Shown piece after piece: positions 1,318 to 19,936 of a stretch of 64,000 nt of DNA. The stretch is taken from assembly GCA_002084805.1 (NCBI GenBank), contig NBMC01000025.1, positions 1 through 64,000 on the forward strand, in the 5' to 3' direction. The DNA is from Spirochaetaceae bacterium 4572_59. Lineage in GTDB: Bacteria; Spirochaetota; Spirochaetia; DSM-2461. Each line of letters opens with the position of its first letter. The first letter of the stretch is position 1. The translations under genes and the position numbers were made by a program. The notes under the pieces were generated by a model. That model was not told the origin of the DNA, did not search any database, and saw nothing but the letters and a program-made list of their open reading frames with translations.

Positions 1318-2028
1318 TTATTTAACAAATCCGTTTGTCCAGGTTCCGCTTCGAAGTTCTCCTGATGCTGAAGGAATTTTAATCACCATACCGGGCAGTA
1401 TCAGTCTGGGATTGTTCGGATCGGGCAGCTGATCTTTATTGGCTTCGTAAAGCAATTCCCATTTCCATGGGTCTCCGTAAACAAAATTGTATCCTGCAAT
1501 GTTCCAGAGGCAGTCTCTGTTTTCAGGGATCAGACGAACCGTATAGGCTGAGACCTTTGTTCCCGCAGGGGCTGTGGGGGGGGCGCGGACATATTCAATA
1601 ACAGACATAACATCCAGTGCTTTCAAAGATTTCTCATAGCTGAGTTCATAGTTCTCATCCTGAAAGAGTTTGTAGGCTTCATCGTAGAGAGCCTTGCCCG
1701 ATGCGTAGGCTTCGGGAAAATTCACCTCAGCTTTTACTTTGGCGGCAGATCTTAGTTCGGTTTCTACCCGTCTTAAAGCAGAATTGGCTCTGTAACGTTT
1801 AAGCATCATCTGAATCCAGGCATCAGATTTTTCCGCATAGAGCTTAGACTCTTCCGCCAGCGTTCTAGCTTCATCATATTCTGCTTCATCGAAGGCCTGT
1901 TCGCTCTGTTTTTTCAGTTCCAGGGATTTTCTGTAATCGGGATTGTCCTGCAGGGACTGTGAAAAAAGAGGGGATGAAAAAAAGATCCCCAGGATCAGAA
2001 CTGACAGGATCTTTGTTAGTTTTCTCAT
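1318..2028 (-). CDS. Secreted LysM-domain-like protein
   Basis: Signal peptide; C-terminal YTVRLIPENRDCLWNIAGYNFVYGDPWKWELLYEANKDQLPDPNNPRLILPGMVIKIP resembles LysM. Confidence 0.75.
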   Translation of the reverse strand: MRKLTKILSVLILGIFFSSPLFSQSLQDNPDYRKSLELKKQSEQAFDEAEYDEARTLAEESKLYAEKSDAWIQMMLKRYRANSALRRVETELRSAAKVKAEVNFPEAYASGKALYDEAYKLFQDENYELSYEKSLKALDVMSVIEYVRAPPTAPAGTKVSAYTVRLIPENRDCLWNIAGYNFVYGDPWKWELLYEANKDQLPDPNNPRLILPGMVIKIPSASGELRSGTWTNGFVK

Positions 2029-2465
2029 TATTCTTCTCCTTCCTGAGCCTCTGCAGTCGCAGCCTTAGCTTTGTTTTCAGCATCGGCGATGGCGTTATCC
2101 GCGGCATTCATAGCATCCAGTGCTGCCTGTTTTTTCTCTTCTGCACTGGCTTTTGCTGTATTGAATCCTTCTTCAGCAGACTGATAGGCTGTGAACGCAA
2201 GTTCCAGATCGACTCTATCTTCCGCTTCCTTTGCTTCAGTATAAATGGTTTCAGCTGACTGATACTCATCCTTGGCTGCCTTTTCTGCTCTAACTTCCAA
2301 CGCCGCAGCTTTGGCTGAGTCTGCATTTTCTCTAGCCTCTATTACTTTGGACCTATCAATTGCAACAGCTCCTTCGACTGGAGTTTCCGTAGAGGCACAG
2401 GACATGAGAAATGATCCCAGGATAAGAATCACAATGATGAGTAGAAAATGTCTTTTTTGTTTCAT
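2028..2465 (-). CDS. Alanine-rich coiled-coil lipoprotein
   Basis: Lipobox-like LGSFLMSCAS; Ala/Glu/Lys-rich; overlaps next gene. Confidence 0.7.
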   Translation of the reverse strand: MKQKRHFLLIIVILILGSFLMSCASTETPVEGAVAIDRSKVIEARENADSAKAAALEVRAEKAAKDEYQSAETIYTEAKEAEDRVDLELAFTAYQSAEEGFNTAKASAEEKKQAALDAMNAADNAIADAENKAKAATAEAQEGEE

Positions 2466-2653
2466 AATGTCTCCTTGATTAACTGATCTGTTAATATGAA
2501 CCGTTAATTCTTATCATAACTTTCATGTATAATAAAAGACAGCTTTTCCATTATTTTACGTTATCTAGAATGACTTTTTAATTCATTATGTCTGTACTTG
2601 AGATAACAATATAAATGAAATAGAATAGAAAATGAAAAGAAATACATTAAAAG

Positions 2654-4003
2654 GTGATACGAAAGTTTATGGAAGATTTATCCTCATACGAAATATTAAA
2701 AAGCCTGAATGTTCCTTCTATGGAAAAAAGACTGGAAGCCTGTGCAAGCCTTGCTGCCAATAAAGAACTGATGAGCAGCCTTCCTCCGGAATCCGATGAA
2801 GTTAACAATCATGTTCATACAAGTTATTCTTTCAGCCCCTATTCTCCCAGTGCCGCAGTCTGGTTTGCCAGAGAGGCCGGTTTAAAAGCGGTGGGTAGTA
2901 TGGATCATGACAGTATTGCTGCCGCAAGAGAGACCCTCGCCGCCGGTAAAATTTTTGGAGTCGCTACAACCGTTGGATTTGAGGTTCGGGTCAATTTTAC
3001 AGGAACCGTCGTGGAAGGCCGGAAACTGAATAATCCTGATTCTTTGAATATTGTCTATATGACGGTTCATGGTATTCCTGAAGATAAAATAGATGATGCT
3101 GCGGAATTCCTGAAACCCATTCAGAAAAATCGGAACCTGCGGAATAGAAAAGAGACAGAGGCTTTAAATAATCTGATAACTCCTCTGGGAATTGAAGCCC
3201 TTGATTTTGACCGGGATGTGTATGGTAGCTCTGAAGCTGCCCATGGCGGTAGTATTACAGAAAGACATATCCTCTATGCTCTTTCTCAGAAGATTGTGGA
3301 GAAAGCCGGTAAAGGTTCTTCTTTAGTCTCTTTTCTGGAGGAGGGGATGGGCATTACTGTTTCCGGGAAAATTCGAGAGTTTCTGCTGGATGAAAGTAAT
3401 CCCCACTACTTCTATGACCTCTTAGGAATCCTGAAAGGGAATTTCCTCGGCCGTTTCTTTATCCAGCCTGATACTAAGGAGTGTCCCTCTGTTTATGACG
3501 TGGTCCGTTTTGCAAACTCTATTGGAGCCATGCCGTCTTATGCCTACCTGGGGGATGTGAGAGAGAGTCCTACGGGTGATAAAAAGGCGGAGAAGTTTGA
3601 GGATGATTTTCTGGATGAACTGATTCCCCAGTTGAAGAAAATCGGTTTTAAGGCCGTAACCTATATGCCCCCCCGGAATACTTTAAAACAACTGCAAAGG
3701 GTTCAGAAGCTCTGCGCGGAGAATGATCTGATGGAAATCAGTGGAGTGGATATAAACTCTTCCAGACAGAGCTTTAATTGCCCGGAGATTCTTCAAGCCG
3801 ATTTTACCCATTTGATCAGCTCTACCTGGGCTCTGATTGCACATGAAAAACTGGCAGCCGGTGATGCCCGCTATGGGTTCTTCCATCCGGAAAACCCTCT
3901 TGCAGCTCTTTCTCTTTCAGAGAGAATAAAACGCTATGGCATTGTGGGAGAAGGAATGGATAGAACTTGTCCTGAGAAATTGATAAAGACAGTTGATTTT
4001 TAA
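2654..4003 (+). CDS. PHP domain-containing protein
   Basis: NNHVHTSYSFSPYSP and GSMDHDSIAAARE PHP metal-binding motifs. Confidence 0.85.
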   Translation: MIRKFMEDLSSYEILKSLNVPSMEKRLEACASLAANKELMSSLPPESDEVNNHVHTSYSFSPYSPSAAVWFAREAGLKAVGSMDHDSIAAARETLAAGKIFGVATTVGFEVRVNFTGTVVEGRKLNNPDSLNIVYMTVHGIPEDKIDDAAEFLKPIQKNRNLRNRKETEALNNLITPLGIEALDFDRDVYGSSEAAHGGSITERHILYALSQKIVEKAGKGSSLVSFLEEGMGITVSGKIREFLLDESNPHYFYDLLGILKGNFLGRFFIQPDTKECPSVYDVVRFANSIGAMPSYAYLGDVRESPTGDKKAEKFEDDFLDELIPQLKKIGFKAVTYMPPRNTLKQLQRVQKLCAENDLMEISGVDINSSRQSFNCPEILQADFTHLISSTWALIAHEKLAAGDARYGFFHPENPLAALSLSERIKRYGIVGEGMDRTCPEKLIKTVDF

Positions 4004-4563
4004 GATGCGCTGATATTCTTCAGAGGAATCCTGTTCTTTCCCAGGGCTTTCCCTTCGGGAGTTTTCAGGAATTCCCTGTTGAGTTTTCCGAGAATAAGGT
4101 TCCACTCCTCCATATTCAGAACATCCTCCGGATCAAAGATATCTTCCATGGTTTCTTCGCTGACATCGGTGAAATTCAGGTCACACCAGCTGATCTGCCA
4201 TTCCGGTTCATCCACTTTTATCCGGATGCCCGCATCATTATAATCCTGGGTCAGGTAGAGAAGAGGAAGTCCGTGGGTCCGGCATATAAGAGGGCGGTAG
4301 GGATAGACCATACAGGCATCGTTATCCAGCATGGTACAGCGTTCTTCACTTACATAAGGCTGGGGATGGAGACCCTCATCCTGGACAACTTTATCCAGTG
4401 CAAACCATTCAAGAGGAAGGAGTGTCAGGTCGGTACAGCACTGGCTGCAGCCTTTCTTACAGACCATATATTCCCTGTAAATCTCAGTCAATCTGGCTGC
4501 TTCTTCCGAAACATCCGATAGAAACGCTCTGTAGTCTTTAAGAATGGCATCAACTGTTCTCAT
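4000..4563 (-). CDS. YkgJ-family cysteine cluster protein
   Basis: CKKGCSQCCTDLTLLPLE ... CTMLDNDACMVYPYRPLICRTHGLPL pattern. Confidence 0.85.
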   Translation of the reverse strand: MRTVDAILKDYRAFLSDVSEEAARLTEIYREYMVCKKGCSQCCTDLTLLPLEWFALDKVVQDEGLHPQPYVSEERCTMLDNDACMVYPYRPLICRTHGLPLLYLTQDYNDAGIRIKVDEPEWQISWCDLNFTDVSEETMEDIFDPEDVLNMEEWNLILGKLNREFLKTPEGKALGKNRIPLKNISAS

Positions 4564-4865
4564 AGCTGAATTGTAAAGCTAGAAGGGATCCATTGGGAAG
4601 GGATTTTTGTAAATGATGCGGTTCTTGATGAGGAATTAGAGAGTGTGGCATTTCCAGCCCATGTTTCTCCATCAGCTCTCTGTCTGCCATAATCCCCCTG
4701 ATGGATCCTTCCTTCATCAATAAGAATCGCTCTGCTGCAGGTTTCCAGTAGGAATTCCATATTATGAGAAGATATGAAAAGGGATTCGCTCATCCCTTTA
4801 ATCAGCTCGCATACTTTTCTTTTATTCCGGGTATCCAGGTTTATAGTGAGCCCCCTTGTCAACAC
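4560..4865 (-). pseudogene. CbiO/EcfA-type ABC ATPase remnant (5' truncated, frameshifted)
   Basis: LDTRNKRKVCELIKGMSESLFISSHNMEFLLETCSRAILIDEGRI matches ATPase C-terminal half; Walker A/signature missing; after a GGGGG run the native continuation MADRELMEKHGLEMPHSL is in another frame. Confidence 0.8.
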
Positions 4866-4904
4866 ATATTTTGAAAAGGTTTTAAGTGTTATGCATACTC
4901 CCTG

Positions 4905-5627
4905 TTATCTCAGGCTAACAAGAAGATCCTCTCTCCCTCTTTTTTCAATACGGACACCACTCCATTGTTTCATCTCATGCATATTAAAATCTATTTGAAA
5001 AGGAAAGAGGCAGGGATTCTGTATTATCTCTTCAATAAGCATAGAACTACGCAAGGCACCGAATAAAATACAGTTTGCAACAAATCCATGCATTTCTACT
5101 GGAATGATAGTTTTAGAACTATCATCATATATCGAAAAAAGACCCTGTTTCCCACTTTTCAACCAACCCCATTGTTCTATTGTCTTCAATGATCGTTGAA
5201 CAGCCCTTATGGTTGTACTTCGTTCTCCCCATTTTTCTTGAATTTTAGTAAGAATCTGTTTTGAAGTAATAGAATCAGATAGCCTTAAAGCTCTCCCGGT
5301 TAACAGGCAAACATCAAAGAAAAAGGGGTAGTTTGCCAATGCCATCAAGTAGTGAATAATCTTTTTCTCTGAATCATCTGCGTGTAAGAATAAATCAATT
5401 GTCTGATTTCTCAAGGGTCTTATCTCAACTGGTACGGTAGACCAAATTCCCATAAGGAGATTAATTGTCTTTCGGAGAGCATCACTGGTTTGATCTTCAA
5501 ATGACTCTCGAAACTTGATTCTTACTTCTTCCGGACTGTTTCCATCTGCCACAAGATAAGCAACTTGATTTAGCCAGTCATTAGTAAGCTGCCTGTCAAA
5601 GCCTATTTTATTCTTTCGTAGAGCCAT
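4905..5627 (-). CDS. brxA: BREX protein BrxA (DUF1819-like)
   Basis: Position after pglZ in a type 3-like BREX operon; overall sequence style of DUF1819 (RALRLSDSITSKQILTKIQEKWG..ERSTTIRAVQRSLKTIEQWGWL). Confidence 0.8.
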   Translation of the reverse strand: MALRKNKIGFDRQLTNDWLNQVAYLVADGNSPEEVRIKFRESFEDQTSDALRKTINLLMGIWSTVPVEIRPLRNQTIDLFLHADDSEKKIIHYLMALANYPFFFDVCLLTGRALRLSDSITSKQILTKIQEKWGERSTTIRAVQRSLKTIEQWGWLKSGKQGLFSIYDDSSKTIIPVEMHGFVANCILFGALRSSMLIEEIIQNPCLFPFQIDFNMHEMKQWSGVRIEKRGREDLLVSLR

Positions 5628-7057
5628 TACTCTTGCTCCTTCTTAATATGAATAAAAGGAACGATAACTTCCTGCACAGATATTCCACCATGTGTTATGA
5701 CAGGTCCTGCTGTGCCAAAGTATTCAGCTTTTTTTTGAGCAACTGCAAAGTAACTATCAGGGAGTGCATATTTTGCAGATTCTATTTTCATTAAATCCTC
5801 ATAATTGACCATAGCCTTTTCTCGGGCAGTTTCTCTGTCATAAACTCGTACTCTCTGACCTTTCGTTTCAACAATAATTCCTTCATTGAGCTTTCTACCA
5901 GGCAAAGCTTCAATATTTCCATGATCAGCAGTGATGTAGATATCATATTCCTGTTTGATAAGTTCTTTTATGATTTCATTGAAATATCCATGCTTCAGCC
6001 ATAATTGAATGCTGTTATACATCTGGGAATATCCCTGGCTCATTTTATGCATGAGTTCATCTACAATGGGAAAAACCGTACCGATAATATTTACACGATC
6101 ATCTTCAATTATCTCTTTCAATCTCTCAAATTGTTTTTGGAAGTCTTCCTGTGGTTTGATAAATTTTGCTTCTGTATTATTTTCAGCTTCCCAGAAAATA
6201 TCCCAGTACTCCTTTTCTTTTTGAGTTGTATTGATTGATTGGCTGTATTCTTTCGGTAATTTACCAGAAAAAATCGCCTGCCTTGATACACTGGTGAGAG
6301 TGGGAATCATAGCGAAGATTCCCGTTTCTTCAACCTGGACTGTGTTTATGAATGAGATCTCCTTTTTTATCAACTCCCACTGGTCAAATGACATCCCATC
6401 AAACACCAGTAAAGCAACCTTTTCTATTTCCTGTTTTCTTCTCTTATAGGCAATATGGGACAAGATATTATTCAGTGTTTGAGGACTATGAATATAAGGA
6501 GCTGTAAGCACAAGTGAATAATTACTGTCACACCAGTTTGAGAATATGAGATTTATTTTATCTACTAATTGAAATAAGATACTTACATATTCATAAGATT
6601 CATCAGATTTATGAAATTGGAAGAGTAGTTCACCTAGCTTTTGGGCAAAGGAAAACCAGTCTTTAGAGTTCCCTGGAAGATTATGAGTTAGTTTTTCTAT
6701 GGCTGAAATTCTTGAAGGAAACAGTTGTGGAAAAGAATAGTTAAAGACTCTAAAATCTCTTTCTCCTATTTCCAATATATCAAAGTCAACCTGATCCAAA
6801 GAATCGGTAGTTATTATAACTAGAGAAAATCCATCAAGATTATCCTGTTCAATTTTCTGTCGATATAGGGTCTCATATTTTTCTCTATAATTATGATAGG
6901 GAAATGCATTAAGTAATGTAAATCCAGATTTTCTTAAAAAATCATTTATATCAAAGATATCAAGAACGGATTGAGATGTTTGGATAATAGAGAGAGGTAT
7001 AGTTCCGATAATATCCGCCGGAAAATCCTCTTCAATTCTTTGTTTTATACTAATCAT
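5627..7057 (-). CDS. pglZ: BREX alkaline-phosphatase-like protein PglZ
   Basis: PglZ motifs EKVALLVFDGMSFDQWELI, IPTLTSVSRQAIFSGKLP, YITADHGNIEALPG; ATG at 7057 overlaps brxHII stop (ATGA). Confidence 0.9.
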   Translation of the reverse strand: MISIKQRIEEDFPADIIGTIPLSIIQTSQSVLDIFDINDFLRKSGFTLLNAFPYHNYREKYETLYRQKIEQDNLDGFSLVIITTDSLDQVDFDILEIGERDFRVFNYSFPQLFPSRISAIEKLTHNLPGNSKDWFSFAQKLGELLFQFHKSDESYEYVSILFQLVDKINLIFSNWCDSNYSLVLTAPYIHSPQTLNNILSHIAYKRRKQEIEKVALLVFDGMSFDQWELIKKEISFINTVQVEETGIFAMIPTLTSVSRQAIFSGKLPKEYSQSINTTQKEKEYWDIFWEAENNTEAKFIKPQEDFQKQFERLKEIIEDDRVNIIGTVFPIVDELMHKMSQGYSQMYNSIQLWLKHGYFNEIIKELIKQEYDIYITADHGNIEALPGRKLNEGIIVETKGQRVRVYDRETAREKAMVNYEDLMKIESAKYALPDSYFAVAQKKAEYFGTAGPVITHGGISVQEVIVPFIHIKKEQE

Positions 7058-9816
7058 TTCTTTTCCCGACATACAGAGAAATAAGATTTTAAGAAGACCA
7101 GCTCCTCTTGCCAAGCCTCAACCTCAAGGTTCAACTGTTTCTGTCGATGATTTCGAACGGTCTGTAAACCTATTTGCTTAATGGCTCTCTGTCGTGCAGA
7201 AAAAAGTAGCTCCTTACTCTTCATCTTTCTGTTAATCAATTCTTCGTGTTTGGTCTGTAGCAATTGATAGTACTGCTGTCCCTGATCCAAAGCTTTACAC
7301 TCAGAGTTCTCAAAATCAACAGATTTTACATCCTGCATGAACTTTGCTTTCCCGGAAATAAGGGTGTTCCATATTTTTTCTGCCGATGGTTTGAAGAATT
7401 TACCCTCTTTGCTTTCAAATAGGGGGAAATATCGTACAAGTTTATTAGTATCTGAATAAAGGGTAACCTGCCATAGAGACCATATACCTTCAATTACATT
7501 TGAAACTTCCGGGATTATAACAACAGGTAAAGAGTTATTATTTGGCCGGGGAGAACTCTTTTCCAGTAATTGTTGAATGATGCTACTCTCAAGGGAAAGT
7601 AAATCGAGGCTATATGTATCCGATTGGACCCGATCAAAAGTCACTTCTTCTGAGAAATCACCATCGGGCCAATAAATATTGTAACCTGTTTTTCCTTCTT
7701 CAATACGAGCATTGTTCTGTTTATTCCATCTCAGATAATTCATAACCATCTGTTTAATCCAGAAACCTATGGGGTGCTGTTCTATCTCTCTGGCAATTCC
7801 CGGGTCCATGGACCCGGTTGACCCAAGTACGGCATTCGAATGTCTTTTCTGACTCATTATCCGCTTAATTTGGGCAATCAATTTATCCACATCCTGTAGA
7901 GCTGTTGATTCATCAACGATAGCAGCCGTATAAAGTTTATTGAAATCTGTATTGGAAGATTCAGAATCCAGGACATCTGATAGCTTATCGGCCCCATACT
8001 CATGGAGAATTTTTTCTAACTTGATCTCAACCACTTCTCGGACCCGATCCTCAACGGTATCAGCAATGGTGAGATTGTAGGCTTCAACGGGGTGGCTTTG
8101 TCCGATTCTGTCTATACGACCAATCCTCTGTTCTAATTTCATGGGATTCCAGGGAATATCATAATTGATGACAGCATGGCAAAACTGCATATTCAATCCC
8201 TCTCCACCAGCCTCTGTAGATACCAGGATCTGTACTTGGTCGGCGAAATGTCTGATAGCAGCTTTTCTTTCATCCATATCCATGGAACCATTCAAAGTTG
8301 CAATAGAAAAGCCCCTTTCTGTCAGGTATTCTTTCAACATATCCTGAGTAGCAACGAATTCAGTAAAGATCAGTATCTTAACAATAGACTCTTCTTCCTG
8401 CTGTTTTTTGTGAATGATGGATATAAGATCATAAAACTTGCGGTCCGGTCCCTGATTCTCACTGTCCCTGGCAAGGTTTACCAGCAATTCGACTTCCTGG
8501 ATTTCCTTTTCCAGTTCTTTCAGATTGAGAGAGAGTAGATCAACCTGATCTTCAAAATCATCTTCAAAGTTCCACTCTTCATTCATACTAACGATCTGAT
8601 TACTATTATTTTTCTGATCTTTTAACAGCTCAAGACGCCTTTCGAGGGTTCTGCGAATGGCTCTTGTACTGGATAGGACCATTCTTTGGAACAACACCAT
8701 GAGGAAACCGTAGGCAGTCTGTTTTTCTGATTGAGCCTTGTTGTATCCCAAGCGGATATAATCGGTCAGACTGTTATAGAGAGAACACTGTAATACATCG
8801 GCTTCTCCCCACTGAGAAGAAATAAGCTTTGTCTGACGTTTATTAAAAAGCGGTTTTCCATCCGAATCTATTGCTAAGCGCTTTTCTGTACGAATGACAT
8901 AGGGACGTACTGTTGTATGGGAAATATTTCCTTCATCACTGAAGGTTTCTTTATCAAGAAAAGACATCAAACGACAAAAAGCATCGCTTTTCCCCTGGTG
9001 AGGAGTGGCGGAAAGAAGCAGGAGATAGGGGGTAGCATTGGATAATCCCTCTCCCAGCTTAAATCGAGCGACCGTATCAGCGCTGCCTCCCAGTCGATGA
9101 GCCTCGTCTATGATGATCAGATCCCAATTGGCAGAGACCAGGCTGTCAAAGCGCTCCTGATTATACTCATCGACCTTTTCCTGGGACCAGCCTTTTCGTG
9201 CTTCCAATGGTTTTACAGAATCAAGGGTACAGATGACCTGATTATGTACTTCCCAGACGTTTTGATCATCCTCAACAAATCCGGAATTACGCAACTGACT
9301 GAACCCTTGAGGTTGAAGAAGATGAAAGCTTTCGGCAAACTTGGTTTTCATCTCCGCCACCCACTGATAGGCCAAACCTGTGGGTGTCACAATCAATATC
9401 CGTTTAACTAGGCCTCGGCTTTTTAGTTCTCGAAGGATAAGTCCGGCCTCAATGGTTTTCCCAAGTCCTACTTCATCGGCCAGGAGATAGCGGACCGTGT
9501 CTTTTTCCATAGCCCTGCTAAGGCATTTCAACTGATGGGGAAGAGGAATAACGGGAGCCTCAAAGGGAGAAACTAATACATTCTGTCCCAGGGTATCCTG
9601 TATCTTGGCTGCCGCAGCTAAATAACCAATATGATGAGTCGTCTGATCCCCTGTCTGCAACTCTTTTAAAGCTTCTTCCTGTACCCAGAGAATCTCCTTC
9701 TCTTCAGGAATAATGATTTCATAGGAGGTTTTATCCCATAAAACCGAAGAACTTAGTATCTTTGCTTCTTTCTTATGCTGCCTGGACCAGACCAGTTCCC
9801 CTATGGAGTACTTCAC
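7054..9816 (-). CDS. brxHII: BREX SNF2/DEAD-like helicase BrxHII
   Basis: LLADEVGLGKTIEAGLILREL (Walker A), LIIIDEAHRLGG, LSATPHQGK, EAGGEGLNMQFCHAVINYDIPWNPMKLEQRIGRIDRIGQ helicase motifs. Confidence 0.9.
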   Translation of the reverse strand: MKYSIGELVWSRQHKKEAKILSSSVLWDKTSYEIIIPEEKEILWVQEEALKELQTGDQTTHHIGYLAAAAKIQDTLGQNVLVSPFEAPVIPLPHQLKCLSRAMEKDTVRYLLADEVGLGKTIEAGLILRELKSRGLVKRILIVTPTGLAYQWVAEMKTKFAESFHLLQPQGFSQLRNSGFVEDDQNVWEVHNQVICTLDSVKPLEARKGWSQEKVDEYNQERFDSLVSANWDLIIIDEAHRLGGSADTVARFKLGEGLSNATPYLLLLSATPHQGKSDAFCRLMSFLDKETFSDEGNISHTTVRPYVIRTEKRLAIDSDGKPLFNKRQTKLISSQWGEADVLQCSLYNSLTDYIRLGYNKAQSEKQTAYGFLMVLFQRMVLSSTRAIRRTLERRLELLKDQKNNSNQIVSMNEEWNFEDDFEDQVDLLSLNLKELEKEIQEVELLVNLARDSENQGPDRKFYDLISIIHKKQQEEESIVKILIFTEFVATQDMLKEYLTERGFSIATLNGSMDMDERKAAIRHFADQVQILVSTEAGGEGLNMQFCHAVINYDIPWNPMKLEQRIGRIDRIGQSHPVEAYNLTIADTVEDRVREVVEIKLEKILHEYGADKLSDVLDSESSNTDFNKLYTAAIVDESTALQDVDKLIAQIKRIMSQKRHSNAVLGSTGSMDPGIAREIEQHPIGFWIKQMVMNYLRWNKQNNARIEEGKTGYNIYWPDGDFSEEVTFDRVQSDTYSLDLLSLESSIIQQLLEKSSPRPNNNSLPVVIIPEVSNVIEGIWSLWQVTLYSDTNKLVRYFPLFESKEGKFFKPSAEKIWNTLISGKAKFMQDVKSVDFENSECKALDQGQQYYQLLQTKHEELINRKMKSKELLFSARQRAIKQIGLQTVRNHRQKQLNLEVEAWQEELVFLKSYFSVCREKK

Positions 9817-9818
9817 CC

Positions 9819-12623
9819 TTAATCCTCAACCACCATACTGGCGTAATCGTAGTACATCAGCAGAGTTTCATCTTCATCGATAATGGCTGGTTTGAGTCTT
9901 TTGGAGATAAGCATTATATTTTTAAACTCTTTGTTCTGGTAATCTTGTTTAAATCCGGCACGGAGAGCTTCACGGCGGACTTCTTTTAACTTACCCTTAC
10001 CCTCTTTATACCCTCCATACTCTTTAAGAAGAGACTTCAAGCGTACTTTTTCCAGGTCCGCTTCTTTATTGGGATCAGGGACATACCAACGGTCCTTAGA
10101 TTTGGATATCAGTGTCTCATCATTCTTATCCAGGTTTCTCAGATCCTTAAAGTTCGTAGAGAGATAAGAGTGTATCTGGGAGGGAACTTCCTCATTCCCT
10201 TCATATCGTAGAAAGTTGAGACCAAGAAGATCCTGTAACTCAGGCTGTTTCTCTCCAGCTTTCCAACTATTAGCAGACATCTGCTGCATAAAGTTGGGAT
10301 TGATATCGGCATAGGTTCCTGGTTTCTTCTTTAGATAATCCCGAAGCCAATCTATTGCTGACTTTTCATCATCAACAAAGAGAGAGAGTTGAACCTGCCC
10401 GGAGGCTTTGGTCCGAGCCTTATCATACTGCATAACTTGATCATGAAGAAAAAACATACCGTCCCGCTCTTCAAAGCGTTCAGCCAGTCCATTCTGAAAC
10501 TCCTGACTGGAAAGAGGAATGTTATATCCTTTACGGACGTAGTAGGAAATAAGCTGATCGTATAGGATACGAGGATCTCGTTCGGGTACAGGTATGAGAC
10601 TAGAACCACTCTTCTTGGTAACAACCAGATATTTCAGATGAGTACCAATAAAATCCCAGACTCCATCTTCTGTATTGGCTTCCCTTATAAAGCGGTCTTC
10701 AAAACCGCCGTTGGGTTTGTAGGCAGAAATGACTAGGTCTTGTTTGACAGAGGTGGGATTATTGACAGCATTGAAACTTCCTTGTTTTTTATCGAGTGCC
10801 GCTACATTCGCAACAATAAATCCGGCATCAGTTAATGATGTTTGAATTGAATTCCAAACAGCAGCTTTAGTATTAGAAAACTCAACTGTCATCCAGCATC
10901 CAGGTTTAAGCATACGGTATGTCTTTTTAAAACAATCAGTCATAATAATTCGATACTCTTCAGACTTCTTATTCTGAGACTTATTTTCAAGTGCTTCCTG
11001 TTTTTCACTCGTAACAATTTTTAACCACGCTTCATCATTTCTATTTAGTTCTGAATATTGAAGATTTGACCCGAAAGGTGGATCGATAAAAACAAAATCA
11101 ATTGAATTATCTTTAATTCCACACTCCTCTAAGGATTGTGTGGATAGAGTATATGAGCCGTCAATATTTAATTTTTTATATCCTCTTAATAGAGTAGAGA
11201 TCCTATCAGAAAATATTTTTACTGCTGGAATTTCAGGAGACAACGATGGAATATAAAGAGTACCATTAAGATGGCCTTTACACACACCACCACCTCCATT
11301 AAAATAATTAGAAACATGTAGCGAGCTTTGCTTATTTGCACGTGTTAGCATATTAATTACTATATCTATAAATGGACCTCCTAATAGCTTTGTCTTCTCA
11401 TAAAGATTTGACAATGTAATGAGATTCCGTTTAGTAAAAAAATGATGTGTATGTGTTATACCTATTCTTAATGGTTCTCCCGTTTTATCACCCTTTTTAA
11501 TCTCAGATATTGGAACCCAATTTGTTATTGGATAAGCCTCAACTCTCTGGATTATATCTAAATCTTTATTATCAGGTTTCTTCTTATGAGTTCCACCAAT
11601 ACCATTTATTGAATAATTTATTAGGACAGGAACCTGTTTTGCCTGTCGTACAATTTTGTTTAGTACGCTATCATGATTGGTGTTCCAAGCTCTTTCTACT
11701 TTACGTTTCGTAAGTAACGCATCACAATATGAACATGGAAAAGAATCTAATATTCTTTTTTCATCATGACTTAGAGCTGTATCCCAAAAAACAATTTCAT
11801 GCCCGCATTCAGGGCAGACAAACACATCGGACCATACGGTATAATTGATTTTGCCTTTGGTAACACCATCAGTATGGAGAGTTTCATACATCCAGCCACA
11901 CTCTTCTTCAACTTCATTAAGAATACGCTTAGCTTCTCTTTCAAATTGAACTACATCAACAGGAGTATTGTAGTTGTAGGCAATAAAGGTTGCTGCTGGA
12001 GAAAGGTCATTTAGGACGGCTTTACGAGCACCCAATTTAGAGAAGGGAGTCCAGATAGTTTTATCCTCTTCATCTGTCTCTTCCTGTAAAATCGTCCCAT
12101 CAGAGTTTACCCGGTATTCAAGAGATTGTACCGTGTCTATATCACCACACATTTGAGCAGCAACTCCGGTCATGCCCGTTCCACAGAATCCATCAAACAC
12201 TATATCTCCTGGTTCGGTGTAATGAAGAATATAACGCATTATGGCCTTATGAGGCACTTTTGTATGATAGGAGTGGGCATTGTAGATGGGATCATTTTTC
12301 CCTTCACTCACATCGGCAGCAAAAGGTTCACGATGATATTTATATCCCTCCGGTTTATTTGGTTTTTCCTGCTCCCATTGCTCAATGAACTTGCCCATCC
12401 AGGGATTGGGACAGGCCGTGTAATAGGGAGGATCGGAAAGAGCGAGGATATCTTCGTCTTCACCATGGGGAAAGCCTTCTATGGCTCGGAACTCCGGTTC
12501 TTTCAATTTTTCTCGTAGTTGTTCTGTATAGTAGATTCGTCGTTCTTCATCGTTGTTGAATGTTTTGCCCAAGCACTCTACAGGACCTTTTTCTTCTGTG
12601 AAATCCAGGTGATTGTCACTCAT
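9819..12623 (-). CDS. pglX: BREX adenine-specific DNA methyltransferase PglX (type 3-like)
   Basis: SAM motif DIVFDGFCGTGMTGVAAQ, catalytic IDPPFGSNLQYSELN, inserted Zn ribbon CPECGHEIVF..CSYCDA. Confidence 0.88.
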   Translation of the reverse strand: MSDNHLDFTEEKGPVECLGKTFNNDEERRIYYTEQLREKLKEPEFRAIEGFPHGEDEDILALSDPPYYTACPNPWMGKFIEQWEQEKPNKPEGYKYHREPFAADVSEGKNDPIYNAHSYHTKVPHKAIMRYILHYTEPGDIVFDGFCGTGMTGVAAQMCGDIDTVQSLEYRVNSDGTILQEETDEEDKTIWTPFSKLGARKAVLNDLSPAATFIAYNYNTPVDVVQFEREAKRILNEVEEECGWMYETLHTDGVTKGKINYTVWSDVFVCPECGHEIVFWDTALSHDEKRILDSFPCSYCDALLTKRKVERAWNTNHDSVLNKIVRQAKQVPVLINYSINGIGGTHKKKPDNKDLDIIQRVEAYPITNWVPISEIKKGDKTGEPLRIGITHTHHFFTKRNLITLSNLYEKTKLLGGPFIDIVINMLTRANKQSSLHVSNYFNGGGGVCKGHLNGTLYIPSLSPEIPAVKIFSDRISTLLRGYKKLNIDGSYTLSTQSLEECGIKDNSIDFVFIDPPFGSNLQYSELNRNDEAWLKIVTSEKQEALENKSQNKKSEEYRIIMTDCFKKTYRMLKPGCWMTVEFSNTKAAVWNSIQTSLTDAGFIVANVAALDKKQGSFNAVNNPTSVKQDLVISAYKPNGGFEDRFIREANTEDGVWDFIGTHLKYLVVTKKSGSSLIPVPERDPRILYDQLISYYVRKGYNIPLSSQEFQNGLAERFEERDGMFFLHDQVMQYDKARTKASGQVQLSLFVDDEKSAIDWLRDYLKKKPGTYADINPNFMQQMSANSWKAGEKQPELQDLLGLNFLRYEGNEEVPSQIHSYLSTNFKDLRNLDKNDETLISKSKDRWYVPDPNKEADLEKVRLKSLLKEYGGYKEGKGKLKEVRREALRAGFKQDYQNKEFKNIMLISKRLKPAIIDEDETLLMYYDYASMVVED

Positions 12624-12633
12624 CGTTTATTCC

Positions 12634-13305
12634 TTATGCCCTGCAATAGGACTGATGCTTTTTTAATTTATATACGGCAACACCATAGAATGGTTTATGC
12701 TGACCTTTAGAACCCAATGCTTCCCATCTATTTATGAGTTTCTGTATTTCTGATTTTGTCCTGGTTCCTTTCTTTTTACTCAGAACCCGCTCAATCTCTT
12801 GTAGAACACCTAATCGATGCATTTTCAACATTTTAAAATTAAGATTGAGCGTTTGTACTAATTGATCATTAAGTTCCGCATCAGTAGATAATATTTTTCC
12901 CTGAGAATTGTACTGAATGAGTCGTTCCATATCATACTTTTGTTCTGATGGGTTAAAATGAAATGACTTTTCACCTTTTTTTGTATCACAATGCTGATCT
13001 ACAGGCTTATGTCCCTCATTTCCTTTACAGCATAATAATAAATTATCATAGTCCAATTTTTTTTTCGATGATTCATCTTGAGATATACAATGTTCAATTT
13101 TGCACTTTAATGGATCATTTTCAATTTTCTGCATACAGTATGCACAAATATATCCCTGCTCCTCAATGAGTGAAGTTCGCAGATCACTTTTTTCTTTGAA
13201 ATCATCAAAAATATCTTTACCAACAAGATCCTTATCATGTATTTTTTGTTGACGCTTATAATCGATTAATGATTGAGGAGGGGTCTTTTTATTTATATTT
13301 ACCAA
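12634..13305 (-). CDS. HNH endonuclease, PtuB/TIGR02646-like
   Basis: EEQGYICAYCMQKIENDPLKCKIEHCISQ ... YDNLLLCCKGNEG....HCDTKKGEK; located directly after an ATPase partner. Confidence 0.8.
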   Translation of the reverse strand: MVNINKKTPPQSLIDYKRQQKIHDKDLVGKDIFDDFKEKSDLRTSLIEEQGYICAYCMQKIENDPLKCKIEHCISQDESSKKKLDYDNLLLCCKGNEGHKPVDQHCDTKKGEKSFHFNPSEQKYDMERLIQYNSQGKILSTDAELNDQLVQTLNLNFKMLKMHRLGVLQEIERVLSKKKGTRTKSEIQKLINRWEALGSKGQHKPFYGVAVYKLKKHQSYCRA

Positions 13306-13310
13306 GATGA

Positions 13311-14585
13311 TTACTCCACATCAGAATACATAGTTATCAAAGCTTCAGCTCTGGAAATATCAGGAACTGAACCATATTTTTTTATAAAAGCTGCAATATA
13401 ATCTTTGGCGATTATGAATTTGTCAGTATCAATAAGATTAAAAATTTCATCAATTTCCCTTTTTACCAACTCATTAATTGAATTGGTTTCCATTAATATT
13501 TCAAGAATCTCACTAGAAGTTAAACCAATAGCCTGATCTGGTTTATAACAGCTAATATTTTTTTGTTTATCTAGGTAAAGGGAGTATATATTATTCCCTT
13601 CAACTTCACTTAGAACCTGAGGAGAATGAGTGGAAACAATAAATTGAATATTTGAAAATGTTTGCATTAGCTTCAGAATTATCTTCTTCTGCCATTGTGG
13701 ATGAAGGTGTAAGTCGATCTCATCAATTAGAACAATTCCTTCACCTTCAAGCGGGTTTGATAAACTGGGATTCGCAATGGATAAACGTCTTGCTAAGTCA
13801 CCGGCCATTGCTAAAAGACATTTTTCCCCGTCAGAAAGCTGATCGACTCTCAGCTTTTCACCATTTTTAGAAACTTCCATTCGCAGGGGATTACGATTTA
13901 CAGAAATCCCACTGAAACCTGAAATAGAAGAGATAGCTTTTCGGACCGTTTCCAATTGCTTGTCATTGAAGGAACTGGGATTGTACTGTGATGATTTAAT
14001 CTCTTTAGTCATCTCCCTAAAATTTTCATTTTCAAGATCTTCCCGGTTACGATACCATTCGAAGAAACTTCTAAAATTTACTCCTGATTCCAGTGATCCA
14101 TCGTATGTTTCTAATAGGTTAAATTCATGTTTCCCCCTTATTCGAAGAGGAATATCATTTACAACCCTGTTTGTGCTGTAATAAATAAAAACAGGAATAG
14201 AAGTATTCTCATTATCAGTAATTTCCTGCCTGATTCGTTTTGCACAATTTGAAAAGTCGATCATGCTTGATTTTTCGTCACCCAAACGACCCTTTTTATA
14301 TTTAACTAATTTTCCTGAGTATGAATAACCATCATCCTTGATAAAAAGCTCTGTTTTAGAATAGGGTTCATCATTTTTAACATCATGCTCACTAATAGGT
14401 CTACCTGGACTTTTACCTGTACGGATTCTAGCAACAATCCACGATAACTGAATAGCTATGGCATCGAGAATACTGCTTTTACCAACACCATTAATTCCAC
14501 AAATTACATTCAATTGCTTATTCAGGTTGACATCTAAATCATGAATACCACGAAAATTCCGAAGTGCTAACTTACTAATAATCAT
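13311..14585 (-). CDS. AAA ATPase, PtuA-like / OLD-SMC-like
   Basis: LRNFRGIHDLDVNLNKQLNVICGINGVGKSSILDAIA (Walker A), DQLSDGEKCLLAMAGDLARRL signature, GIVLIDEIDLHLHPQWQ Walker B, FIVSTHSPQVL. Confidence 0.85.
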   Translation of the reverse strand: MIISKLALRNFRGIHDLDVNLNKQLNVICGINGVGKSSILDAIAIQLSWIVARIRTGKSPGRPISEHDVKNDEPYSKTELFIKDDGYSYSGKLVKYKKGRLGDEKSSMIDFSNCAKRIRQEITDNENTSIPVFIYYSTNRVVNDIPLRIRGKHEFNLLETYDGSLESGVNFRSFFEWYRNREDLENENFREMTKEIKSSQYNPSSFNDKQLETVRKAISSISGFSGISVNRNPLRMEVSKNGEKLRVDQLSDGEKCLLAMAGDLARRLSIANPSLSNPLEGEGIVLIDEIDLHLHPQWQKKIILKLMQTFSNIQFIVSTHSPQVLSEVEGNNIYSLYLDKQKNISCYKPDQAIGLTSSEILEILMETNSINELVKREIDEIFNLIDTDKFIIAKDYIAAFIKKYGSVPDISRAEALITMYSDVE

Positions 14586-14588
14586 AAA

Positions 14589-17500
14589 TCACTCCTCAAT
14601 CACAATTCTGATCTGCTTTTCTTCTCTACCAGCAATCATATTACTTAAATAAGTTTCAAACCGTTCTCGCAGTTCATTGGGAGAAATCGGTAGTCCTGTT
14701 TTATTTAATGCCTCTATGAACTCTTTTTGATTAATGGATACTTTATCAAGTCCCTTTAATACATCCTTTATAGCCTGCACCAATGAGGACGAAATGGTAT
14801 CTGGTAGATTGCCATCACTGATAAAAAACTTGATAACAGAAACAGATTCCTTATCTCCTAAAAGATCAAGATTCGCCTGAATGGTTGGATCTTCCATCTC
14901 TTCTTTTAATGTTATTTTCCAATTGCTGTATAGCTCATCGAGCTCTGAGTCCAGTTCTTGTAATCTCTGATCAGCACTCAGTGATGTTCTGCCCACACCT
15001 TTTCGTTCAAAACCACAATGAAGGCATTTGGGAGAATTCTCTAAGTCAGACATCGTTAATAAAGTACAATTCTTCAAGGAGACAAGAGTCTCTTCCCAGT
15101 TTCGCAGCTGATGAAAAGGAAGGATTTCAATTGTACTCAATGCTCTTAAACACTCTAATCTACTATCTCTTTGAAGTGATCCCTTATACTCATGAGCCTT
15201 TGGTCCCAATCTAAAGTGTTTATGGATTTCGATATAGTCATTCATATACCGGTTTTTCAGCTTCTGCATTTGTGATTTCAAATCACTCTGAGTGTCAGCA
15301 GATTTCCAGGGTTCAGCAGTAGCCAAACTGTTTATGAAATGGGATCGTAAATTGTTGTAATCTTCTTCCCATGCAGTTTCATCGGGAATCTCACTCTCCG
15401 CTCTGGCTAGATAATTAGCAAGCGGTTGGAATTCCTGGACAAATCTTACCATTCCTTCAATTTCACTTAGTAATCCCAACTTCGTTTTAAATGACTCAAT
15501 CTCTTCGAGAGTTTTTTTGAAGTTTATGATTTTTGCTGGCGTATTATACCGGGAAATAGTCTCAATAAAGCCCTTAACGTCTACCAGAGAGTCAATATAC
15601 TCCTGTGCTCTGCCTTCAGAAAGAAGCTTCTGTTCCCAGAGGATAAAACCATTTCGGATTTTTCGCTCGCTTTCGGCACACTCGTTTAGAAGAGCATCTG
15701 CTCTATCAATAAGTTCCTTTATCGCTTCTTTCCTCGTACTGGATTGTACAATTAAGCCTGGTCGAAGCTTCAAAACAGTAAACAATGCCTTTAACTCTAC
15801 CAGAGGAAAATCTTCAGCCTTTTTAATATGATTGAAATCAATGATTTGATTAAAACCGATAGAGAGTAGTGCATCCAGGTTGGATGCAGTAAATCGTTCA
15901 GATCCAATGGAAAGATTGATAAAACCTTCACTTATCAATGCAGATAGATATACAGGTAGGAAATCTATTTCGAGAGAACTGTTTACAATAAACTCTTTAT
16001 CATTTCGTTTAATGACAAGCTCATTGCGGTTTACAACCTGATTAGTCTCTTTGGAATTAATGATAGTAAGAATGTTACTACAGATCACCGAGTGATCCAC
16101 CGAAATGCCTTCTGCAGATAACAGATCCAAAGCAGTAAGCACAGCATTGGCCTGACCATTTATTTGACCTCTTACAACAGCTTTTAGTGCCTCTTGAACA
16201 GTCTGCTTTCTATTTTGATTGGTAATTTTAATGGAGAACTCAGGATAATCTGGCTTCTGTTCGGTAATATAATCGGATAAGAGGCCGGAGGAGAGAGTAT
16301 CAATTTGCTGCTTGAATGTCAGTCTTTCAGAACTACTAATCCCAGATAATTCTCTTAGATTTATACTGGCAGACCAAGTGGTAAAAAGTTTTGTACTGTT
16401 CTTATAGGACACTTGAAAACGATCGGAAATATTATCCTTCAACCAATTTAATAGTTCTCTCTGGTATTTTTGGGCTAACTGATTATAGACCGTTTTATAG
16501 TCTTGAACAGCAGTTAAACTTAACTCTTTGGCAGCAGCATAATGGCGTAGATTTTCTTCAAAAATATCATCCACATCCTTTAACTGAAAAAAAACTTCAT
16601 CTTCTTTCCCTGAGGAGATAGTTGAACTTTGCCTGAAAGGATCGATGAAGTAGATATAAAACTCTCTTGGAGGCTGTGTCGTAGATCTCTCGTTAGGGCT
16701 TCCAAAAAATAGGTATCCGTCAATCTCAGATTTCTTCTGATGCCACATTAATTGATATTCCCAAATTTTGAATCCAGTACGGTAAGTTACATCAGTCTGT
16801 TCCATGATTAAGGAAAGGATCTCAAAATAGTAACGGGTCAGTTCCTTATCGGCAGAGAGCTTGCTGGCCTTATTCCTGATCTCCTGATTTGGATCTTTAC
16901 CCATATCTGTATAGATATAATAGTGCCTGTTCTCTTCATTCAGTCTGATATACAAACTGTTAAGAGTGGTCATGATATTTTTAATGACTTTCTGAATTAT
17001 GATTAATAGAAAGTTCTCATCTTTCTCTGGAACTGTGAGGTAGAGAAACAGTTCATCTTTAAGGTTCTCAGCGGTTAAACCTACGGCAGCTTTTAAATCA
17101 CCGGTAGTTAAACGATGAATTGCCAGTGCGGACACAATCTTATGTGCCACCTGAAGCTGTTCTTTAGATCCCTCGTAGGACTCATTGAGAATGGTTTCAA
17201 CTCGTTCTGATATTTCAATAACTTTTTTAACATCGGGATTTGCCCGGTTTGTATGATCATCAACAATAATTTTCCAGTAAGAATCATAGGAGAAAATACC
17301 TGTCCCTTTCTCCGGTACTTCAAGATCAATAATGGACTGAATTTTTTTGCTGATAGATTCAAGGATCTTTCTCTGCTCTCCAATATTGACTAATTGAAAT
17401 TTCTCAAAATACTGTTCATGAACTGGGAATAAATCGACATAATTCTCAAGACCGCCAGATAAAGGCTTATAAAACAGCTGGAATTTCTCTAAATGTTCCC

Positions 17501-18314
17501 TGATTTTAGCTTTCTGCTTTGGGGTTTTCTTGAGAAGGCGTTCGGAGACAACATAACTGACATCTTCCTTCTGAATGGTGGCTTGAATATACCTTTCAGA
17601 GACTCGTCCCAAAGAATCAGCAGCAAACTTAAAAGAAGGGCTCTCAAAAAGGGATTCCTGGACTCCAGTAATAAATCGGAATCGGGAATTCTTACAAACT
17701 TCCCCGATTTCTCTTAAAAACCCCAAATCCTGGAGTAGTTTCTGGTCATCTTCTCTTCCCCGGAGGAAATCCAATAACTCATCAAGAATCAAAACGAGTC
17801 CTTGATCTGGATATTTCTCCTGAAACAAAGCCATCATCTCATGGATAGAATCTTTATTATTAGCAATCTTATCAATTGAAGGAAAAGTAAAATTGATTCC
17901 CAATTTACAAAGGTGCTTTTCCAACTCCATACAGATGGCATTACGTAAGGTCGTGGAAACTCCACCCAATTCAGATCGAATGACTTTGAACTTACCGGCA
18001 ATCTGTTTTGCCTGTTCCTTGACTATTGAATTATTTACTAAATCCAAATAGTCGCTGTTTTCTGCCAAGGCAGATATGAATGCCATTAAGTGAGATTTAC
18101 CAGTACCATAGTTACCAACGATAAATATCCCTTTTTGATCACTGGGAATATCAAACTGGAGATTGGGAATAATAATGTTATTAAGATTGATCTCCATAGA
18201 TTGAGAAATAACAAAGGTTTTAACTAAATCCGCAGCCTTCTTTTCATTATCGGCTTCCGTAAGGGTTATGACAGTTTCAATAGGATCAAATTGGATTAAA
18301 TCTTTATATTTCAT
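14589..18314 (-). CDS. brxC: BREX P-loop ATPase BrxC
   Basis: FIVGNYGTGKSHLMAFISALAE Walker A, GLVLILDELLDFLRG Walker B, 1241 aa, between brxF and methyltransferase module. Confidence 0.88.
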   Translation of the reverse strand: MKYKDLIQFDPIETVITLTEADNEKKAADLVKTFVISQSMEINLNNIIIPNLQFDIPSDQKGIFIVGNYGTGKSHLMAFISALAENSDYLDLVNNSIVKEQAKQIAGKFKVIRSELGGVSTTLRNAICMELEKHLCKLGINFTFPSIDKIANNKDSIHEMMALFQEKYPDQGLVLILDELLDFLRGREDDQKLLQDLGFLREIGEVCKNSRFRFITGVQESLFESPSFKFAADSLGRVSERYIQATIQKEDVSYVVSERLLKKTPKQKAKIREHLEKFQLFYKPLSGGLENYVDLFPVHEQYFEKFQLVNIGEQRKILESISKKIQSIIDLEVPEKGTGIFSYDSYWKIIVDDHTNRANPDVKKVIEISERVETILNESYEGSKEQLQVAHKIVSALAIHRLTTGDLKAAVGLTAENLKDELFLYLTVPEKDENFLLIIIQKVIKNIMTTLNSLYIRLNEENRHYYIYTDMGKDPNQEIRNKASKLSADKELTRYYFEILSLIMEQTDVTYRTGFKIWEYQLMWHQKKSEIDGYLFFGSPNERSTTQPPREFYIYFIDPFRQSSTISSGKEDEVFFQLKDVDDIFEENLRHYAAAKELSLTAVQDYKTVYNQLAQKYQRELLNWLKDNISDRFQVSYKNSTKLFTTWSASINLRELSGISSSERLTFKQQIDTLSSGLLSDYITEQKPDYPEFSIKITNQNRKQTVQEALKAVVRGQINGQANAVLTALDLLSAEGISVDHSVICSNILTIINSKETNQVVNRNELVIKRNDKEFIVNSSLEIDFLPVYLSALISEGFINLSIGSERFTASNLDALLSIGFNQIIDFNHIKKAEDFPLVELKALFTVLKLRPGLIVQSSTRKEAIKELIDRADALLNECAESERKIRNGFILWEQKLLSEGRAQEYIDSLVDVKGFIETISRYNTPAKIINFKKTLEEIESFKTKLGLLSEIEGMVRFVQEFQPLANYLARAESEIPDETAWEEDYNNLRSHFINSLATAEPWKSADTQSDLKSQMQKLKNRYMNDYIEIHKHFRLGPKAHEYKGSLQRDSRLECLRALSTIEILPFHQLRNWEETLVSLKNCTLLTMSDLENSPKCLHCGFERKGVGRTSLSADQRLQELDSELDELYSNWKITLKEEMEDPTIQANLDLLGDKESVSVIKFFISDGNLPDTISSSLVQAIKDVLKGLDKVSINQKEFIEALNKTGLPISPNELRERFETYLSNMIAGREEKQIRIVIEE

Positions 18315-18718
18315 TACTCATCCTTGTAAACAAGATAATTGTCTATTTTATGTGTATAATAATCCGGTCTACCTGGCCGGCTGTATATTACTTGATCTTT
18401 TTGGATTTCTCCCGGCCAGATTATAGCAATCTTCTGAGTTTTTGACTTCTCTTTTATAAAAGATAGCAGATCAAAACGGTATTCAGGACGGAACAGAATT
18501 TCAAAATTATAGAGGCATATAATATCATATTGTGATTCGACATATTTAGAATATATTTGTTCAAAATCAAAGTGATCTGCTTTCAAGCCTTTCTGGCATA
18601 AAATTGAATTAATATTTAAGGAATTATCTTTGAAATGCTTCTCAACAATTGATTCTTTAAGTTTTCTGTCAAAGAGAGCTAATTTATAATATTGCTTCTC
18701 AATTTTATCATTTAACAT
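18314..18718 (-). CDS. brxF: BREX protein BrxF
   Basis: 134 aa small protein overlapping brxC (ATGA) in a type 3-like BREX order; assignment mainly by size and position. Confidence 0.7.
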   Translation of the reverse strand: MLNDKIEKQYYKLALFDRKLKESIVEKHFKDNSLNINSILCQKGLKADHFDFEQIYSKYVESQYDIICLYNFEILFRPEYRFDLLSFIKEKSKTQKIAIIWPGEIQKDQVIYSRPGRPDYYTHKIDNYLVYKDE

Positions 18719-18720
18719 CT

Positions 18721-18870
18721 TTATAATATTACCCCTGTCTTCAGTCTATAGTTGAGTTTCCGTTTCCATAATACTGTATGAACTTGTAGGTCTGGAAAAT
18801 GAGGATGCTCGTTAATCAAAGGCAGAAGCTGCAAGAGAAGAGTGGGTTGATTTACATACTGCTCATACAT
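18721..18870 (-). pseudogene. 49-codon ORF, possible AbiEii toxin N-terminal stub
   Basis: Translated by hand: MYEQYVNQPTLLLQLLPLINEHPHFPDLQVHTVLWKRKLNYRLKTGVIL*; start overlaps abiEi stop (ATGTATGA); first ~25 aa resemble AbiEii starts, nucleotidyltransferase motif absent. Confidence 0.5.
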
Positions 18871-19645
18871 AAGATTCATCCTTCAAAAGTGGAGCTGGTA
18901 CTGTTATATTGTATTTCTTATCCAACACCCCAGCTACCTGAATCACACGTTTTCCTGCTCCCAATGAGATAGAGTCGGGATTCAGCTTAAAGAACCAATC
19001 ATGCTGATGATACTCAGCCATATAGAGAGCTAAGCGATTCACCTTTACACTGCTGCTCTCTTCCAGAAGTGTTTGTAAGAGGGACGCCCTGAGCATGGTT
19101 AGATTCTCTACTATATCTCTGGCTTCAGAGAAACTGATCTGTTTAGGTATGCCATCAAGCATTTCGAGGTAGGCAAGCTCCGGTGCGGAGATCATTAGAG
19201 AATAATCACCGAAGCTACGGCTTATCAACGGCAGCTCTTCCAGCTGAAGGAAATTGCGTGTACTGACTGTCACATTATTCTTATTCATCATCTTTCGAAA
19301 CCAGAGTGGAAGGTCTTTGATTTGTTGTCCGTATAGAAAGATCCTCCGCTCTACCATAGATAGATAATGGCTATAGCCTTCCTGCTCCAGGGCAAAGAGT
19401 CCTCCAGGATATATCGAGAGGTCTATACCTTTTTGTAGAGCATATAGGCCGCCGGTCCAATCAGCGGTCTGGCCAGCAAGCCCGTATACTCCTTTTGCAG
19501 GAGAAACAAGCCAGCCGGATTTCTTATAACGTGTTAGAAGTGAGGTGTTATACCCGAGATCTGACAATTCCTTGCTTGTTTTCAGGCTGTTCTTTTCCCA
19601 AATTTGGAGGAGTTTGTTTATATTGGTCGTCTTAACTTTACTCAT
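18863..19645 (-). CDS. Type IV TA antitoxin AbiEi-like wHTH protein
   Basis: N-terminal wHTH (SLKTSKELSDLGYNTSLLTRYKKSGWLVSPAKGVYGLAG) plus AbiEi C-terminal domain style. Confidence 0.8.
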   Translation of the reverse strand: MSKVKTTNINKLLQIWEKNSLKTSKELSDLGYNTSLLTRYKKSGWLVSPAKGVYGLAGQTADWTGGLYALQKGIDLSIYPGGLFALEQEGYSHYLSMVERRIFLYGQQIKDLPLWFRKMMNKNNVTVSTRNFLQLEELPLISRSFGDYSLMISAPELAYLEMLDGIPKQISFSEARDIVENLTMLRASLLQTLLEESSSVKVNRLALYMAEYHQHDWFFKLNPDSISLGAGKRVIQVAGVLDKKYNITVPAPLLKDESYV

Positions 19646-19756
19646 AGTATACTTATGAACCAGATATTAAACCGAAATAGTGATGTTTTAAAGTACTTTT
19701 GAGCTCAACCTACGTTTATTCACTATATATTGCTCATTTAATGAAAGCATACCTAA

Positions 19757-19936
19757 TCATATTTAAAGTTAAAGAAAATAAACCCTAAAGTGAAAGTTCT
19801 TATTGCCACAGGGAATTCATATAACAGGAAAGTTCAGTTTATGAGAGATAACGGGGTGACCGATATAATTGTGAAACCATATAAGATCGAAGATTTTAGT
19901 TTTACAATTAGAGAGGTCCTTGATAAATCCTTATGA
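19757..19936 (+). pseudogene. 3' remnant of response-regulator receiver domain
   Basis: Translated by hand: SYLKLKKINPKVKVLIATGNSYNRKVQFMRDNGVTDIIVKPYKIEDFSFTIREVLDKSL*; contains receiver beta4 and the conserved KP region; Asp-acceptor half missing. Confidence 0.75.

What the first reader, a model, noticed from the sequence alone, without database searches (positions are those of the whole stretch)
18721..19645. Orphan AbiEi antitoxin with an apparent AbiEii stub leading into BREX
Seen: abiEi-like gene ends in an ATGTATGA overlap with a 49-codon ORF (18721-18870), which ends 2 nt before brxF ATG. The stub's first ~25 residues look like an AbiEii N-terminus, and no nucleotidyltransferase toxin follows. 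Known: AbiEi is a wHTH protein that autoregulates the abiE promoter. Inference: BREX replaced the toxin and the antitoxin may have been co-opted as the BREX operon regulator, analogous in position to BrxR in other BREX loci. Alternatively the stub is a genuine small leader gene.
Basis: partly seen in the sequence, partly recalled or inferred. Interest (0 to 1): 0.7.

Follow-up and report, generated by a model that had tools for sequence, protein, structure and literature searches.

The report
Orphan antitoxin leads a BREX operon
In this bacterium a toxin-antitoxin gene pair has lost its toxin, and the surviving antitoxin gene, a likely DNA-binding repressor, now sits joined to the front of a phage-defence (BREX) operon, in the place where many related operons carry a different regulator.

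Summary
Observation confirmed. An intact AbiEi_3 antitoxin gene (18863-19645, minus) overlaps a 49-codon ORF (18721-18870) whose stop lies 2 nt before brxF. The ORF's first 25 codons are a real AbiEii remnant: they align at DNA level with a congener's abiEii start and beat all 2000 shuffles against intact toxins. The remnant ends before catalytic motif I, so it is not a toxin; its last 24 codons are unassigned. A complete type III BREX operon follows, with no predicted promoter or terminator between abiEi and brxF. The closest BREX sister (BrxC 84% identical) has an HTH_17 gene there instead. No AbiEi occurs in 80 other type III BREX loci, but many have HTH_17, and single ones TetR or WYL, before brxF: AbiEi occupies an established regulator slot. 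Against deliberate co-option: orphan AbiEi_3 is common in this class (antitoxin open 10/10, toxin full or near full length 3/10), also without BREX downstream. Best mechanism: BREX is read from the AbiEi-repressed abiEi promoter; that regulation is inferred, not shown. New variant of a known kind, seen once.

The parts
18863..19645 (-). abiEi: intact 260-aa type IV antitoxin / winged-HTH transcriptional regulator (AbiEi_3_N + AbiEi_3)
   Evidence: Pfam and PADLOC hits; 78-80% identical copies in own genome C60 and in congener G005; pairwise dN/dS 0.10-0.13
18796..18870 (-). 25-codon AbiEii N-terminal remnant (MYEQYVNQPTLLLQLLPLINEHPHF); lacks catalytic motifs I-IV
   Evidence: DNA homology with G005 abiEii ending at codon 25; profile score 6.9 bits, 0/2000 shuffles
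18721..18795 (-). remaining 24 codons plus stop of the stub ORF; origin unassigned
   Evidence: not HTH_17-like, not AbiEii residues 26-52, only a non-significant resemblance to the AbiEii C-terminal WK motif (p 0.08-0.21)
18863..18870 (-). ATGTATGA stop/start overlap of abiEi and the stub ORF
   Evidence: sequence
18314..18718 (-). brxF, first gene of the type III BREX operon; ATG 2 nt after the stub stop
   Evidence: PADLOC BrxF 1.5e-14
14589..18314 (-). brxC (DUF6079)
   Evidence: Pfam DUF6079 and PADLOC BrxC, both E=0
13311..14585 (-). ptuA-like ATPase (Septu) embedded in the BREX operon
   Evidence: PADLOC PtuA 1.3e-144
12634..13305 (-). ptuB-like protein (Septu)
   Evidence: PADLOC PtuB 3.6e-64
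9819..12623 (-). pglXI methyltransferase
   Evidence: PADLOC PglXI E=0
7054..9816 (-). brxH helicase
   Evidence: PADLOC BrxHI|BrxHII E=0
5627..7114 (-). pglZ (short form; also short in sister locus G069)
   Evidence: PADLOC PglZ 4e-93; sister 480 aa
4905..5627 (-). brxA
   Evidence: PADLOC BrxA 1.5e-47
19646..19673 (-). 5' flank of abiEi partly conserved with the G005 copy (GGTTTAATAT...TGG...ACT-ATG); probable -10/leader region of abiEi
   Evidence: DNA alignment; upstream sequences of the three copies
19690..19708 (-). two abutting perfect 10-bp palindromes (TTGAGCTCAA / AAAGTACTTT) 45-63 nt upstream of abiEi: weak candidate operator
   Evidence: about 2% of Markov shuffles have two within 20 bp; not found in the other copies; unique in window

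Best explanation
An abiE (type IV toxin-antitoxin) module lost its toxin by a deletion that kept the intact abiEi gene and the first 25 codons of abiEii, and left abiEi directly in front of a type III BREX operon. The two are now one transcription unit: the BREX genes have no obvious promoter of their own and are read from the abiEi promoter. The stub ORF serves only as a translational bridge (overlap at abiEi, stop 2 nt before brxF). Because AbiEi proteins are winged-HTH autorepressors of their own promoter, AbiEi would hold the BREX operon under negative feedback, the job done by WYL BrxR at type I BREX and probably by small HTH leaders at other type III operons. Shown: gene identities, toxin loss, stub homology, frame coupling, complete BREX operon, absence of the leader gene found in the closest sister. 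Inferred: single transcript, AbiEi binding upstream of 19645, repression of BREX, selection for that role.
For: AbiEi intact, with purifying selection on average. AbiEii remnant confirmed and without catalytic motifs (motifs from PMC3985639). No minus-strand promoter-like or terminator-like site between abiEi and brxF. Whole BREX operon open. Closest BREX sister (BrxC 84%) has a 65-aa HTH_17 protein overlapping brxF at the same position and no AbiEi; no HTH_17 leader exists in the window. The stretch before brxF holds an HTH_17 gene in 32 of 80 loci, TetR in one, and WYL in a Leisingera plasmid. AbiEi represses its own promoter and full-length protein is needed (PMC3985639); WYL BrxR is a described BREX regulatory element (PMC9122589).
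Against: The architecture is a single instance: no AbiEi or AbiEii in 80 other type III BREX loci. Orphan AbiEi_3 genes persist without BREX: own-genome copy 2, G202, Pantoea plasmid, so retention needs no BREX function. No convincing AbiEi operator was found; the palindrome pair is weak and not shared. The promoter scan is a simple consensus and a promoter inside abiEi cannot be excluded. dN/dS averages over time when toxins were still present.
Confidence: 0.5

Rival explanations
1. Passive decay and juxtaposition: abiE modules in this lineage lose the toxin first because that is the only safe order, and a BREX cassette happened to end up at one such wreck. BREX may use abiEi's promoter, but AbiEi has no adapted role in BREX control.
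For: Across sampled relatives AbiEi_3 is open in 10 of 10 loci while AbiEii is full or near full length in only 3 (G062, G132, G537) and broken differently or missing in the other 7. The congener G005 also has a truncated abiEii, there convergent with a type I BREX run. Orphan AbiEi stands alone in G202 and on a Pantoea plasmid.
Against: Frames are tightly coupled and no other promoter is evident; abiEi shows purifying selection.
Confidence: 0.35
2. The orphan AbiEi copies are kept as anti-addiction antitoxins that neutralise AbiEii toxins arriving on mobile elements; the BREX neighbourhood is incidental.
For: Two intact paralogues with no intact cognate toxin in the genome; AbiEi_3-AbiEii pairs are carried on plasmids.
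Against: Plasmid AbiEi hits are all below 60% identical (best listed 37%), so cross-neutralisation is uncertain; no direct evidence.
Confidence: 0.12
3. The stub is a functional small leader gene (peptide or attenuator) for BREX.
For: It is open, with a stop 2 nt before brxF, and overlaps abiEi.
Against: Its first half is explained entirely as an AbiEii remnant; the second half matches nothing tested.
Confidence: 0.03

Closest known systems
AbiE type IV toxin-antitoxin system (AbiEi/AbiEii; PMC3985639)
   Same: AbiEi_3 antitoxin with N-terminal wHTH region, toxin start overlapping the antitoxin stop, AbiEii N-terminus
   Different: Toxin reduced to 25 codons; the next functional gene is brxF
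BrxR / WYL leader regulators of BREX operons (PMC9122589, PMC9122601)
   Same: DNA-binding regulator gene as first gene before the BREX genes; a WYL gene overlaps brxF in a Leisingera type III BREX
   Different: Unrelated protein family; no experimental evidence of regulation here
Type III BREX with HTH_17 leader (for example sister locus G069)
   Same: Same operon order including embedded ptuA-ptuB, BrxC 84% identical
   Different: Leader is a 65-aa HTH_17 protein overlapping brxF, not AbiEi plus stub
Orphan antitoxins
   Same: Intact antitoxin without its toxin, as in G202 and a Pantoea plasmid
   Different: Those have no downstream defence operon in frame-coupled position

Membership tests
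AbiE type IV TA system | AbiEi antitoxin with wHTH and C-terminal domain | tested here: met
   Pfam AbiEi_3_N residues 6-97 and AbiEi_3 residues 100-250
AbiE type IV TA system | Intact AbiEii nucleotidyltransferase toxin downstream | tested here: not met
   25 codons only, ending before motif I; no other AbiEii profile match in the window
[quoted passage not shown]
   only a weak palindrome pair seen
Type III BREX | brxF, brxC, pglXI, brxH, pglZ, brxA present and open | tested here: met
BREX leader regulator (BrxR-like by position) | Regulator gene directly upstream of and co-directional with the first BREX gene | tested here: met
BREX leader regulator (BrxR family proper) | WYL-domain protein | tested here: not met
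   Pfam hits are AbiEi families only
BREX leader regulator | Changes BREX expression | not testable with these tools
   needs reporter or transcript data

The most novel reading that the evidence does not exclude
A toxin-antitoxin repressor has been captured as the dedicated transcriptional regulator of a BREX operon after its toxin was deleted, replacing the HTH_17 leader present in the closest sister operon.
Probability: 0.35. Interest if true: 0.65.

Novelty: new variant of a known kind. Interest (0 to 1): 0.45.

Why it matters
How BREX systems are kept in check is known mainly for WYL BrxR leaders. A case where an autorepressing antitoxin has taken the same slot would show that the regulator position of a defence operon can be refilled from broken toxin-antitoxin modules, and would give orphan antitoxins a concrete second function. 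It is directly testable with one binding assay and one reporter.

Tried and rejected
Stub tail as remnant of the HTH_17 leader: rejected, scores no better than shuffles. Tail as degenerate AbiEii residues 26-52: not significant, p 0.29 protein, 0.33 DNA. Tail as AbiEii C-terminus after an internal deletion: the best placement in the whole profile is the C-terminal WK motif, but p is 0.08-0.21, so left open. PglZ truncated, hence BREX broken: rejected, the sister locus has an equally short PglZ. Remaining AbiEii piece elsewhere in the window: none. Intact AbiEii elsewhere in this genome or congeners: none of this kind. AlphaFold2 model of AbiEi: too poor to use (pLDDT 60); no PDB sequence match. 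AbiEi_3 in phages: none in the phage collection, three loci in IMG/VR, all followed by an AbiEii-like ORF of about 300 codons. Literature: no paper found describing AbiEi as a BREX leader; a 2026 BREX survey (PMC12839542) has no occurrence of 'AbiE' in its main text.

Full report
Check of the observation. On the minus strand abiEi occupies 18863-19645 (260 aa) and is a clear AbiEi_3 antitoxin (AbiEi_3 4.6e-41, AbiEi_3_N 2.1e-20; PADLOC AbiEi 1e-75). Its stop overlaps the start of a 49-codon ORF in the string ATGTATGA, and that ORF's TAA lies 2 nt before the brxF ATG at 18718.

The stub is a true AbiEii remnant. A same-genus genome (G005) carries an AbiEi 78% identical to the window's, and there the overlapping ORF reads MYEQYLNQSRLLLQLLPLIKKYPHFALKGGTAINFFIRDFPRLSVDIDLSY..., an unmistakable AbiEii start. 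DNA similarity between the two loci runs through the abiEi stop and ends at codon 25 of the toxin (window 18796). Against an HMM built only from four intact AbiEii proteins (G062 and three plasmids) the stub scores 6.9 bits at positions 1-25 and none of 2000 shuffles reaches this. The catalytic motifs hG[G/S]...DhD and beyond (PMC3985639) are all missing, so the stub cannot be a toxin. The 24 codons that follow are of unknown origin: not the HTH_17 leader, not the next AbiEii residues, and only insignificantly similar to the AbiEii C-terminal WK motif.

The antitoxin is orphaned, and this is common here. The genome holds a second AbiEi (80% identical) on contig C60, followed by an AbiEii fragment (about positions 165-237 of the profile) with the catalytic N-terminal part gone. 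A third, unrelated abiE-type locus on C52 also has stops in its toxin. No intact cognate AbiEii was found in this genome or five congeners. In the wider class or phylum samples AbiEi_3 is open in 10 of 10 loci, but the toxin is full or near full length only in G062, G132 and G537 and is truncated, internally deleted or absent in seven. The breakpoints differ, so the losses look independent. Toxin-first decay is the expected order for such modules (inference).

What follows is a complete type III BREX operon: brxF, brxC, ptuA, ptuB, pglXI, brxH, pglZ, brxA, all open. A genome in another family of the same class (G069) has the same operon order with BrxC 84% identical and the same embedded ptuA-ptuB, but no AbiEi; a 65-aa HTH_17 protein overlaps brxF instead. 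DNA similarity between the two operons begins inside brxF; upstream of it they share nothing detectable. No HTH_17-like leader remains in the window.

The slot before brxF. Among 80 loci of a GTDB-wide scan plus three relatives, brxF was found in 80 of 83; 32 of those 80 have an HTH_17-type gene in the upstream stretch, in most cases abutting or overlapping brxF. One has a TetR gene ending at the base before brxF and a Leisingera plasmid has a WYL gene overlapping brxF. None of the 80 scan loci has a significant AbiEi or AbiEii match anywhere in the fetched stretch. AbiEi therefore sits in a position that other type III BREX operons fill with other DNA-binding proteins, and as far as searched it is the only one of its kind.

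Mechanism. No promoter-like site on the minus strand and no terminator lie between abiEi and brxF, so BREX is probably transcribed from the abiEi promoter. The partly conserved 5' flank (19646-19673) suggests that abiEi kept its own promoter core. AbiEi of Streptococcus agalactiae represses its own promoter through inverted repeats and needs the whole protein to do so (PMC3985639). By analogy, AbiEi here would hold itself and BREX under negative feedback. A pair of abutting 10-bp palindromes at 19690-19708 is the only operator candidate and is weak (about 2% by chance, not shared with the other copies). Average dN/dS of 0.10-0.13 among the three copies shows that the protein has been maintained, but part of that history predates toxin loss.

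Verdict. The main rival is that an orphan antitoxin of a kind that persists anyway happened to end up in front of BREX. A single assembly cannot exclude a misassembly at the junction, although the two abiEi copies in the genome differ by about 20% in protein sequence and are unlikely to cause one (inference).

Noticed in passing
window 12634-14585: A Septu-like ptuA-ptuB pair is embedded between brxC and pglXI; the same arrangement occurs in G069, a different family (L029 10637-12580).
   Followed up: partly
L008 (G005:C6) 1457-10741: In the congener, a type I BREX run (pglX, pglZ, brxL) ends convergent with abiEi and an abiEii truncated after about 52 codons, so two different BREX types abut broken abiEii genes in one genus.
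   Followed up: partly
L007 805-2382 (G000:C52): A third, unrelated abiE-type locus in the same genome also has a damaged toxin (in-frame stops, start missing).
   Followed up: partly
type III BREX loci L032-L111: A small HTH_17 (excisionase-like) gene lies upstream of brxF in 32 of 80 loci with a found brxF, mostly abutting it; it looks like a standard leader regulator of type III BREX and was not found named in the survey paper searched (no 'excisionase' or 'MerR' in PMC12839542).
   Followed up: partly
window 19790-19936: Short plus-strand ORF resembling the C-terminal part of a response-regulator receiver domain, probably a gene remnant, between abiEi and the divergent SDR gene.
   Followed up: no
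window 357-830: Schlafen/AlbA_2-domain protein (Pfam 1.2e-21) near the other end of the BREX region.
   Followed up: no
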